Shown here piece after piece: positions 12,989-28,287 of a stretch of DNA of 64,000 bases (positions within the stretch are counted from its first letter, which is position 1; every line of letters starts with the position of its first letter). The stretch is from Eggerthia catenaformis OT 569 = DSM 20559 (lineage in GTDB: Bacteria; Bacillota_I; Bacilli_A; Erysipelotrichales; Coprobacillaceae), in the NCBI RefSeq assembly GCF_000340375.1, contig NZ_KB446647.1, positions 384,166 through 448,165 on the forward strand, written 5' to 3'. Position numbers and translations under genes: made by a program. The notes beneath the pieces are model-generated. The model made no database searches. It saw only the letters and a list, made by a program, of their open reading frames with translations, and was not told the DNA's origin.

Positions 12989-13933
12989 TTATTTTGCATA
13001 GCCACTTTTTAAATCAACCACACTGATAAACTCACCTTCGCCAAGCCATGCCTTAATATTGTGTTTTGTGATATCAGTAATCTTATTAACAGTAAAATCA
13101 AGCTGATAGCCTCCTGTAATATGAGGAGTAATATAAATATTTTTTATAGACCATAATAGATCATCTGATTTTAACGGTTCATTTTCTTCAACATCCAAAT
13201 AAACACCCTTAAAGCGTGATGCATTCTTTACCAAAGCACCTCTATCAATAATATTTCCTCTTCCTGCATTCATTAAAATACTTCCCTGCTTACATGATGA
13301 AAGAATATGATCATCAAACAAATGATATGTTTCTTTAGTCCCAGGCAATACAATAACAATCACATCTGCTTTACTTACTTCTTCTTTTAAATTTTTAATA
13401 GAGTGAACCTCATCAAAGTATTCAAGATGACCGCTTCGTCTTCGCATACCTACTAAATAGCCGCCTAAAGACTTTGCTCGTATCGCAAATTCCTTGCCAA
13501 TATTACCCGTTCCTAAGACAAGTATTCTTTTTCCTATCGGTGAAATGACAGTTCCTTCATTATGCCACAGACCTTCTCTTTGATTATCCATATAAGAAGG
13601 GATTTTCTTCATAATCATCAACATATAAGTAATCAGATACTCTGCAACTGCAACACCATATGCTCCTGACATACAGGTTAAAATCGTATGTTCAGGAATT
13701 ATACCGTCCATATACTGATGGACTCCGGCACTGACTAATTGTATCCATTCTAAATTTGGGCATGATTGAAGCTACGAAGGATTAACATTCCCCACTAAAG
13801 CCTGAATATTCTGTAAATCTTCTAAGCTGATTTCATCTCTTTTTTTAGATATAAACTCTGTATTTGAATCCAAAGCTTTAATTTCCGCTTGGATTTTTTC
13901 ATCAAATGGTCCTTCTATTAATACTCTTTTCAT
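12989..13933 (-). pseudogene. 2-hydroxyacid dehydrogenase interrupted by an in-frame TAG
   Basis: The reading frame runs from an ATG at 13933 to 12989 with one internal stop: TAG at 13774-13772, codon 54. The first part encodes MKRVLIEGPFDEKIQAE... and the rest continues in the same frame through SCPNLEWIQLVSAGVHQY into an NAD-binding Rossmann domain (GTGNIGKEFAIRAKSLG), NAGRGNIIDRGAL and DVEENEPL...ITPHITGG. These are the hallmarks of the D-isomer 2-hydroxyacid dehydrogenase family (about 315 residues). Without the stop the gene would be full length. An internal ATG (13711) could give a 240-residue truncated protein lacking part of the catalytic domain. Confidence 0.85.
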
Positions 13934-25730: not shown

Positions 25731-26849
25731 CTATAAAATTAATTCTTTGATATCATGATAGTTATAATCATCAAAGCTATTTGCGACATTAAGACAAGTT
25801 AATTCGCCATTATATGTATTGATTGCTGAATAAATAACATCATTCTCTTGACACGCTTGAGAAAATCCCTTGTTAGCAATCTGTAAGCCATAATGGATAG
25901 TCGCACTTGTTAGTGCAATTGTTGATGTTCTTGAGACAGCACCAGGCATATTACCTACACAATAGTGAACAACTCCTTCTTCTACATAGATCGGATCATC
26001 ATGAGTTGTTACTCGTGTTGATTCACCGCATCCTCCCTGATCTACTGCTACATCTACATAAACTGAACCTTTTTTCATGATTTTTAAATATTCTCTTTTA
26101 AAAATCTTAGGTGTTGATTTACCGGGAATTAAAACAGCACCTATTACCAAGTCTGCTTCTCTGACTGATTTTTCGATATTAATATTATTAGAAACTAATG
26201 TCTGTACCTGTGTTCCATATAATTCATCAATATATTCTAATCGCTTTAAATTAATATCTAGAATAGTCACATTTGCTCCCATACCTACTGCAATTTTGCA
26301 GGCATTAAGTCCTACTGTTCCGCCTCCTAAAATAACAACATGGCCTCTAACTGTCCCGGGTACTCCGGCTAAAAGAATTCCTTCACCACCATATTTCTTT
26401 TCAAGATATTTAGCACCTTCCTGAACTGATAAGCGACCGGCAATCTGACTCATTGGAGCAAGCAAAGGAATGCTGCCATCTTTTTCAATCAGCGTCTCAT
26501 AAGCAACTGCTGTTACTTTTGCCTTTAAAAGAGCATCTATTAAAGGTTTATCAGCTGCTAAATGAAAATAAGTATATAAGATCAATCCTTCATGGAAATA
26601 ATTATATTCTTCTTCTAAAGGTTCTTTAACTTTTACCATCATTTCTGATTTTTCCCAAATTAATGAGGCATCCTCAATAATTTGTGCTCCAGCACTATTA
26701 TATTCTTCATTGCTGAATCCCGAACCTATTCCGGCATCCTTTTGAATATAAACAATATGGCCTTTGCTGACATACTCTTTAACATTATCAGGTGTTAATC
26801 CTACTCTGTATTCATTATTTTTTATTTCTTTAACACATCCTATAATCAT
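25731..26849 (-). CDS. ald: alanine dehydrogenase
   Basis: NAD-dependent, reversible deamination of L-alanine to pyruvate and ammonia. It has 372 residues, the standard size. The opening KEIKNNEYRVGLTPDNV carries the substrate-binding Arg; other segments are ALLAPMSQIAGRLSVQEGA, the NAD-binding GGGTVGLNACKIAVGMGANV and the late GNMPGAVSRTSTIALT. It has its own promoter (TTGCAT-N17-TATAAT) and a terminator, so it is monocistronic. It could link amino-acid use to the adjacent lactate dehydrogenase at the level of pyruvate. Confidence 0.96.
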   Translation of the reverse strand: MIIGCVKEIKNNEYRVGLTPDNVKEYVSKGHIVYIQKDAGIGSGFSNEEYNSAGAQIIEDASLIWEKSEMMVKVKEPLEEEYNYFHEGLILYTYFHLAADKPLIDALLKAKVTAVAYETLIEKDGSIPLLAPMSQIAGRLSVQEGAKYLEKKYGGEGILLAGVPGTVRGHVVILGGGTVGLNACKIAVGMGANVTILDINLKRLEYIDELYGTQVQTLVSNNINIEKSVREADLVIGAVLIPGKSTPKIFKREYLKIMKKGSVYVDVAVDQGGCGESTRVTTHDDPIYVEEGVVHYCVGNMPGAVSRTSTIALTSATIHYGLQIANKGFSQACQENDVIYSAINTYNGELTCLNVANSFDDYNYHDIKELIL

Positions 26850-26922: not shown

Positions 26923-26949
26923 ACATAATTCATTTGATTATATAAGCAT

Positions 26950-26978
26950 AAAAGAGAGATGATACTCACCTCTCTTTT
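26950..26978 (-). terminator. terminator after the HPr-LdhA fusion gene
   Basis: A 9-bp stem AAAAGAGAG / CTCTCTTTT with an 11-nt loop just past the stop codon. The T-run is short. Confidence 0.7.
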
Positions 26979-26985
26979 ACTCTTA

Positions 26986-28287
26986 TTATGCTTTTACCTC
27001 AGCAAATCCTAAGTCATTTCCTTCATTAAAATTACGAGCATTTTCCATTGTAACAACTGCAATAGCCTGTAAAGCTTCTCTTGTAAAGAAAGCCTGATGT
27101 GAAGTTAAGACTAAATTAGGGAACATTTGTAAACGAGCTGTAATAGAACTATGAAGTGCTTCATCAGATCTATCAGTATAGACATTCTCATCTTCTCCTT
27201 CATAAACATCTAAAGCTACTGCATGGAACTTATCAGCTCTTAAGCCGGCAATTAATGCTTCTGCATCAATTAATGGACCACGTGCTGTATTAACCAGCAT
27301 AACATTATTTTTCATCTTAGAAATAGCTTCACTATCAATTAAATGATAAGTTCCACCTTCTCCCATAATTAATGGTGCATGTAAAGAAATAAGATCAGCT
27401 TTTTCTAGTAATTCATCTTTGCTTACATAAGTTAATAAACCTTCATCAACTAAAGACTGATTAGGATAAGCATCCCATCCAATAACAGTCATGCCATATC
27501 CCTTAGCAATTCTAGCAAAGCACTGACCAATCTTACCGGTCCCCATAACACCACAAACCTTATTATGTAAGTCTAAGCCAAGCAACCCAGATAAAGCAAA
27601 GTTATTATCTCTTACTTTATTATAAGCTTTTCCAAGTCTTCTGTTTGCTTCCTGAATAATTGCCATTGCATGTTCAGCTACTGCATATGGAGAATAAGCA
27701 GGTACACGAGCCACTTTAATATTGCATTCCTTAGCAGCCTGTAAATCAACATTATTAAATCCGGCACAGCGTAATAAGATCAACTTAACCCCGCCTCTTG
27801 CTAATTCCTCTACAACACTTCTAGGTGCTTCATCATTTACAAAGATACATACGGCATCATATCCTTTAGCTAATGAAGCTGTTTCTGGAGTTAATCTTAC
27901 TGTAAAATATCTAATATCTGAATTATATGTGCCAGGACCTTTATCCTTTACTAATTCACTAAAGAATGTACGATCATAATCCTTTGTTCCAAAGAAAGCA
28001 ATCTTTAATATCTTTGTAGGAGCTTTCTCAGCAAATTCTCCTTTTAGTAATTCTTCTACTTTTACAATTGCTTCTTCTTCATCAGCACCTTCAGCTGTTA
28101 CAATAAGTGTATCACCTTTCTGAGCCCCCAAAGCTAAAATTTGTAATACATTATTACCGGCAGCAGTCTTATCACCTAATTTGATAGAAACTGCACTCCT
28201 AAAATTAACACATAAATTGGCTAGTAAACCGGCTGGACGTGCATGAATCCCCATTTGATTCTCAACAACATAACTAATTTCTTTCAT
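26986..28287 (-). CDS. HPr-domain / D-lactate dehydrogenase (LdhA-type) fusion
   Basis: A single protein of 433 residues. Residues 1-85 are a complete HPr phosphocarrier fold: GIHARPAG with the phosphorylatable His15, and the NNVLQILALGAQKGD helix region, where regulatory Ser46 is replaced by Asn46. Residues 93-433 are a D-lactate dehydrogenase very like E. coli LdhA: CIFVNDEAPR, LRCAGFNNVDL, VPAYSPYAVAEHAM, the NAD motif GTGKIG, NTARGPLIDAEALI, ALDVYEGE and the catalytic His in TSHQAFFTREAL. The family reduces pyruvate to D-lactate with NADH. PTS phosphorylation at His15 may regulate it (inference). Confidence 0.93.
   Translation of the reverse strand: MKEISYVVENQMGIHARPAGLLANLCVNFRSAVSIKLGDKTAAGNNVLQILALGAQKGDTLIVTAEGADEEEAIVKVEELLKGEFAEKAPTKILKIAFFGTKDYDRTFFSELVKDKGPGTYNSDIRYFTVRLTPETASLAKGYDAVCIFVNDEAPRSVVEELARGGVKLILLRCAGFNNVDLQAAKECNIKVARVPAYSPYAVAEHAMAIIQEANRRLGKAYNKVRDNNFALSGLLGLDLHNKVCGVMGTGKIGQCFARIAKGYGMTVIGWDAYPNQSLVDEGLLTYVSKDELLEKADLISLHAPLIMGEGGTYHLIDSEAISKMKNNVMLVNTARGPLIDAEALIAGLRADKFHAVALDVYEGEDENVYTDRSDEALHSSITARLQMFPNLVLTSHQAFFTREALQAIAVVTMENARNFNEGNDLGFAEVKA

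What the first reader, a model, noticed from the sequence alone, without database searches (positions are those of the whole stretch)
26986..28287. HPr phosphocarrier fused to D-lactate dehydrogenase, with Ser46 replaced by Asn
Seen directly: one continuous 433-residue frame with an intact HPr domain (His15 in GIHARPAG) and a complete LdhA-type D-lactate dehydrogenase. Known: HPr is phosphorylated at His15 by enzyme I and at Ser46 by HPr kinase to control CcpA. Here residue 46 is Asn, so the HPrK route appears lost while the PTS route is kept. Inference: glycolytic or PTS flux could directly gate fermentation to D-lactate, a built-in sensor not acting through CcpA. The fusion is separate from the ccpA gene in the same region.
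Basis: partly seen in the sequence, partly recalled or inferred. Interest (0 to 1): 0.8.

Follow-up and report, generated by a model that had tools for sequence, protein, structure and literature searches.

The report
Sugar-uptake phosphocarrier fused to lactate enzyme
A gut bacterium makes D-lactate with an enzyme that has a complete sugar-transport phosphocarrier (HPr) built into its front end; the same fused protein turns up in many gut and rumen Firmicutes, always with the phosphate-accepting histidine, so sugar-uptake status may control lactate production directly, although nobody has tested this.

Summary
One 433-codon ORF (minus strand, 28287-26986) encodes an HPr domain (residues 3-82), a short linker and a complete D-lactate dehydrogenase, with His15 intact and Asn at position 46. 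It is not an assembly error: 97 distinct full-length copies came from gut and rumen Firmicutes (Erysipelotrichaceae, Lachnospiraceae, Oscillospiraceae, Selenomonadaceae). In all 97, Gly13, His15, Ala16 and Arg17 are invariant. Residue 46 is Asn 78, Asp 17, Glu 1, Ser 1, so loss of the HPr-kinase site is a family trait. The LDH domains form a separate clade: no stand-alone LDH exceeds about 52% identity to this one in the genomes searched. The genome also has enzyme I, HPr kinase and an ordinary Ser46 HPr, but no L-LDH, so the fusion is probably its main lactate-forming enzyme. Best reading: enzyme I phosphorylates His15 according to PEP/pyruvate, and this (or the dephospho-HPr surface) tunes D-lactate formation without HPr kinase or CcpA. 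Phosphorylation, its effect and its sign are inference. The 17 Asp46 copies are a tension, because S46D cripples phosphorylation of E. coli HPr. I found no paper describing the fusion in an open-access library.

The parts
26986..28287 (-). whole HPr-D-LDH fusion gene (433 aa + stop)
28036..28287 (-). HPr domain, residues 1-84 (beta-alpha-beta-beta-alpha-beta-alpha in the AlphaFold model)
28243..28245 (-). His15 codon, predicted enzyme I phosphorylation site; invariant 97/97
28150..28152 (-). Asn46 codon, in place of the HPr-kinase Ser46 (N 78, D 17, E 1, S 1 of 97)
28009..28035 (-). linker, residues 85-93, variable sequence, low confidence in the model
26989..28008 (-). D-lactate dehydrogenase domain, residues 94-433; Arg336, Glu363 and His397 match the catalytic triad of D-LDHs
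26944..26984 (-). strong stem-loop right after the stop codon (whole 66-nt stretch folded: -21.6 kcal/mol, z -5.2), probable transcription terminator, so the gene is probably the end of its transcript

Best explanation
A D-lactate dehydrogenase that carries its own PTS-responsive regulatory domain. Shown: the fused protein, its conservation, and the intact phosphorylation motif and catalytic residues. Inferred: enzyme I transfers phosphate from PEP to His15 of the HPr domain. Because that reaction yields pyruvate, the LDH's own substrate, the phosphorylation state reads the PEP/pyruvate ratio and PTS sugar flux. When PTS sugar flows and pyruvate is high, the domain is dephosphorylated and the LDH is active or has higher pyruvate affinity; when sugar is scarce, phospho-His15 restrains it. 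With Asn or Asp at 46, HPr kinase cannot act on it, so this control is separate from CcpA-type catabolite control. The direction of the effect is my guess from metabolic logic.
For: His15, Arg17, Gly13, Ala16 invariant in 97/97 copies, while 6 of 46 stand-alone HPr-like proteins sampled lack His15. Positions facing enzyme I/EIIA in known HPrs (set chosen by analogy) are more conserved than the rest of the domain (3.52 vs 2.67 bits; permutation p 0.002), which favours PTS-partner binding over a mere spacer. HPr domain under purifying selection, median dN/dS 0.07 (LDH 0.035). Enzyme I in the own genome and in 45 of 50 other fusion-bearing genomes. Own genome has no L-LDH and no other D-LDH-type protein. 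Among relatives L-LDH is in 11/27 fusion genomes vs 92/121 without the fusion (Fisher p 8e-4, not corrected for kinship). The nearest characterised relatives are tetrameric D-LDHs with allosteric behaviour toward pyruvate, FBP or Mg2+ (PMC4230899). HPr is known to regulate other proteins by binding, e.g. MtlR in E. coli (PMC5320558, PMC6763467), and pyruvate kinase A in Vibrio vulnificus (title cited there; paper not read).
Against: No phosphorylation or activity data. Asp46 in 17 and Glu46 in 1 of 97 copies: S46D lowers phosphoacceptor activity of E. coli HPr from enzyme I about 2000-fold (cited in PMC5320558). Five fusion-bearing genomes showed no enzyme I N-terminal domain; these are draft metagenome bins that still hold other HPr-family genes, so incompleteness is likely but not proven. 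The HPr domain evolves about twice as fast as the LDH domain. The chosen interface set also overlaps generally conserved residues. No conserved genomic neighbour ties the gene to the PTS.
Confidence: 0.5

Rival explanations
1. Docking/channelling: the HPr domain brings the LDH to enzyme I or to EII complexes so that pyruvate released by enzyme I is reduced on the spot; phosphorylation is a by-product of docking, not an allosteric switch.
For: Invariant partner-binding face; variable linker with low model confidence; enzyme I makes the LDH's substrate (established PTS chemistry).
Against: Would not by itself require invariant His15, although His15 also lies in the docking face; no co-localisation data.
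Confidence: 0.17
2. Dephospho-HPr as a binding ligand: the fused domain acts by contacting its own LDH or other enzymes, and phosphorylation matters little, as in the Asp46 copies.
For: Asp46/Glu46 copies would be poor enzyme I substrates by analogy with S46D; HPr-MtlR precedent for regulation by direct binding (PMC5320558, PMC6763467); fusion-specific invariant residues such as Cys26.
Against: His15 and Arg17 are kept in all 97 copies, the Asp46 ones included.
Confidence: 0.15
3. Extra phosphocarrier: the domain simply works as another HPr feeding EIIs, and the LDH is a carried partner.
For: Intact His15 motif; several of these genomes have multiple HPr paralogues.
Against: A separate HPr is present alongside it in the own genome and in all fusion-bearing relatives tallied except one fragmented assembly, G028; a carrier would not need to stay fused to one LDH lineage.
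Confidence: 0.08
4. Structural only: the HPr domain serves folding or oligomerisation of this LDH lineage.
For: Fusion LDHs form a separate clade; every LDH found at 65% identity or more to this one is fused.
Against: Conservation concentrates on the phosphorylation site and partner face rather than elsewhere.
Confidence: 0.1

Closest known systems
Tetrameric D-LDHs of Fusobacterium nucleatum, Pseudomonas aeruginosa and E. coli (PDB 5z21, 5z20, 5z1z)
   Same: LDH domain aligns over its full length at roughly 43-46% identity in the structure comparison; catalytic residues conserved.
   Different: None of them has an HPr domain; no stand-alone LDH found is more than about 52% identical to the window's LDH domain.
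HPr (PtsH) of Firmicutes
   Same: Fold, GIHARPA site, enzyme I facing surface.
   Different: Asn/Asp at 46 instead of Ser; fusion-specific Cys26, Ala42 and other residues; covalently joined to an enzyme.
Multiphosphoryl transfer proteins with HPr domains (FPr/FruB, DhaM, IIAMan-HPr)
   Same: HPr as a module of a larger polypeptide (PMC2405797).
   Different: In those the partner domains are other PTS domains; here the partner is a metabolic oxidoreductase.
HPr regulation of enzymes and repressors by binding (MtlR in E. coli; pyruvate kinase A in Vibrio vulnificus)
   Same: Proposed logic: HPr phosphorylation state reports sugar flux to a non-PTS target (PMC5320558, PMC6763467).
   Different: Those are separate proteins that meet by diffusion; here the sensor is built in.

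Membership tests
HPr family phosphocarrier | matches the family model above the curated cut-off | tested here: met
   PF00381 76.6 bits (cut-off 23); TIGR01003 69.4 bits (cut-off 47.9)
HPr family phosphocarrier | His15 with Arg17 in the active-site loop | tested here: met
   97/97 fusions
HPr family phosphocarrier | phosphorylated by enzyme I | not testable with these tools
   enzyme I gene present; no biochemistry
Ser46-regulated Gram-positive HPr | Ser46 target of HPr kinase | tested here: not met
   Asn46 here; Ser in 1 of 97 fusions
NAD-dependent D-lactate dehydrogenase | both 2-hydroxyacid dehydrogenase domains present | tested here: met
   PF00389 and PF02826
NAD-dependent D-lactate dehydrogenase | catalytic Arg/Glu/His and the GxGxxG NAD motif | tested here: met
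   Arg336, Glu363 invariant, His397 in 96 and gap in 1; GTGKIG motif; triad assigned from knowledge of the family
NAD-dependent D-lactate dehydrogenase | reduces pyruvate to D-lactate | not testable with these tools
   closest solved relatives are D-LDHs; NCBIfam D-LDH models match only below their cut-offs, so substrate specificity is inferred

The most novel reading that the evidence does not exclude
A widespread, previously undescribed class of fermentation enzyme in gut and rumen Firmicutes whose activity is set directly by PTS phosphorylation of a built-in HPr, so that PEP/pyruvate and sugar influx gate D-lactate output without CcpA or HPr kinase.
Probability: 0.42. Interest if true: 0.8.

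Novelty: new variant of a known kind. Interest (0 to 1): 0.62.

Why it matters
D-lactate from rumen and gut bacteria matters for acidosis and for methane yield. In low-methane sheep the Sharpea azabuensis D-LDH transcript was 12-fold higher (PMC5069950). In the Sharpea porci genome examined here the fusion is the only close D-LDH match, so that transcript is plausibly this protein, although the S. azabuensis gene itself was not checked. A direct PTS-to-LDH link would explain rapid, transcription-independent switching of sugar flux into lactate and is testable with simple biochemistry. It would also show HPr used as a built-in sensor domain of a metabolic enzyme outside the PTS.

Tried and rejected
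Assembly artefact or frameshift: rejected, since many independent genomes share the join. Recent one-off fusion: rejected, given 65-88% full-length identity across two families of the order and further copies in other families. Neighbourhood guilt-by-association: no recurrent partner gene (largest real-looking groups in about 10 of 80 loci; the larger groups overlap the fusion itself and are antisense or alternative frames). Promoter scan near the gene: no more sites than shuffles. Literature: ten searches found no description of an HPr-LDH fusion; the library is open access only, so absence is weak evidence. LDH tree was a quick tree with many weak branches and only two stand-alone outgroup rows; it shows clustering by family with some mixing, compatible with transfer between families but not proof of it. 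AlphaFold model (pLDDT 83, pTM 0.71) gives both domain folds but I drew no conclusion on their relative placement. The set of HPr interface positions was chosen by analogy, not from a complex with this protein.

Full report
Observation. The gene lies on the minus strand, 28287 to 26986, 433 codons, ATG start, uninterrupted. Pfam places HPr at residues 3-82 and the two 2-hydroxyacid dehydrogenase domains at 103-425 and 209-399; NCBIfam TIGR01003 (HPr family) is above its cut-off, while the D-LDH models match below theirs. His15 is CAT at 28245-28243 and residue 46 is AAT (Asn) at 28152-28150. The best solved relatives are Fusobacterium, E. coli, Salmonella and Pseudomonas D-LDHs for the C-terminal part and ordinary HPrs for the N-terminal part. 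None of the PDB matches listed covers both domains.

Is it more than a chance join? Full-length copies were found in 27 of 148 genomes searched (this one included) at 65-100% identity. I did not inspect the remaining 483, so the total number of fusions is unknown. Titles of the 80 name Erysipelotrichaceae, Lachnospiraceae, Oscillospiraceae and Selenomonadaceae, mostly gut and rumen bins. After removing duplicates there are 97 distinct fusions.

Conservation. Gly13, His15, Ala16 and Arg17 are identical in 97 of 97, Pro18 in 96. Residue 46 is Asn 78, Asp 17, Glu 1, Ser 1. Ser, Asn and Asp are all good helix caps (general knowledge), so the substitution can keep the fold while removing the kinase target. 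In 46 stand-alone HPr-like proteins sampled, 46 is Ser in 39, Lys in 5 and Leu in 2; the Lys46 proteins include Lachnospiraceae HPrs next to an enzyme I gene, so lacking Ser46 is not special to the fusion. Positions facing enzyme I and EIIA in known HPrs are more conserved than the rest (permutation p 0.002). Median dN/dS is 0.07 for HPr and 0.035 for LDH over closely related pairs. LDH residues Arg336 and Glu363 are invariant and His397 is present in all but one gapped row.

Lineage. Between the fusions (65% identity and up) and the best stand-alone LDHs (52% and below) there is an empty gap in 148 relatives and 392 genomes of the phylum. In a quick LDH tree the fusions lie on one long branch apart from two stand-alone outgroup LDHs. 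Fusion HPr domains share residues that are absent or uncommon in the stand-alone sample: Ala20, Gln24, Cys26, Ala42, Gly44. This is consistent with one origin and later spread, but stand-alone sampling was mostly from the same order.

Genome setting. The genome (1.94 Mb, 8 contigs, 100% complete by the tool's figure) holds enzyme I, HPr kinase, a canonical Ser46 HPr and a third, divergent HPr. It has no member of the L-LDH/malate dehydrogenase family PF00056 or of TIGR01771, with working controls. The other 2-hydroxyacid dehydrogenases are a SerA-type protein next to serC, a 463-aa D-2-hydroxyacid dehydrogenase and a 240-aa partial protein. So the fusion is probably the main NAD-dependent lactate-forming enzyme. 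Among relatives L-LDH is present in 11 of 27 fusion genomes against 92 of 121 others; the test ignores kinship. Enzyme I is found in 45 of 50 more distant fusion genomes; the five without are draft bins that still carry other HPr-family genes. Downstream, a strong hairpin follows the stop codon, then an alanine dehydrogenase gene. Neighbours are not conserved across loci.

Mechanism. The best-supported reading is a D-LDH with a built-in PTS sensor: enzyme I phosphorylates His15 from PEP, releasing pyruvate, the LDH substrate, so the domain reads PEP/pyruvate. I propose that the dephosphorylated form is the more active one. Nothing here shows phosphorylation or its effect. Supporting precedents: the nearest characterised D-LDHs are tetrameric and show cooperative pyruvate kinetics at alkaline pH, with FBP and Mg2+ effects on two of the three (PMC4230899), and HPr controls MtlR in E. 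coli by direct binding (PMC5320558, PMC6763467). The tension is Asp46 in 17 copies: S46D reduces phosphoacceptor activity of E. coli HPr about 2000-fold (cited in PMC5320558). Either the fusion context tolerates it, or those copies act through binding alone.

Verdict. Observation confirmed; interpretation partly supported. The architecture is a new variant of a known kind (HPr as a module; HPr as a regulator). I found no earlier description in the open-access library, which does not exclude one elsewhere.

Noticed in passing
window 26986-28287 (residue 26) and relatives: Cys26 in helix 1 of the HPr domain is invariant in all 97 fusions, while stand-alone HPrs sampled have Ala (44) or Val (2) there. 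By the helix pattern it should face the core; whether it has a redox or domain-contact role is unknown.
   Followed up: partly
L003:1489-1746: Third HPr-like protein of the genome, 85 aa, with His15 but Thr17 in place of Arg17 and Lys at 46; function unclear.
   Followed up: no
window 12989-13711: 240-aa 2-hydroxyacid dehydrogenase ORF that lacks the N-terminal part of the family models; possibly a broken or truncated gene.
   Followed up: no
window 25731-26849: Alanine dehydrogenase (TIGR00518), another pyruvate/NADH enzyme, directly downstream of the fusion.
   Followed up: no
L170, L175: One Selenomonadaceae genome (G190) carries two separate HPr-LDH fusion frames with near-identical HPr domains; the shorter may be cut by a contig end.
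   Followed up: no
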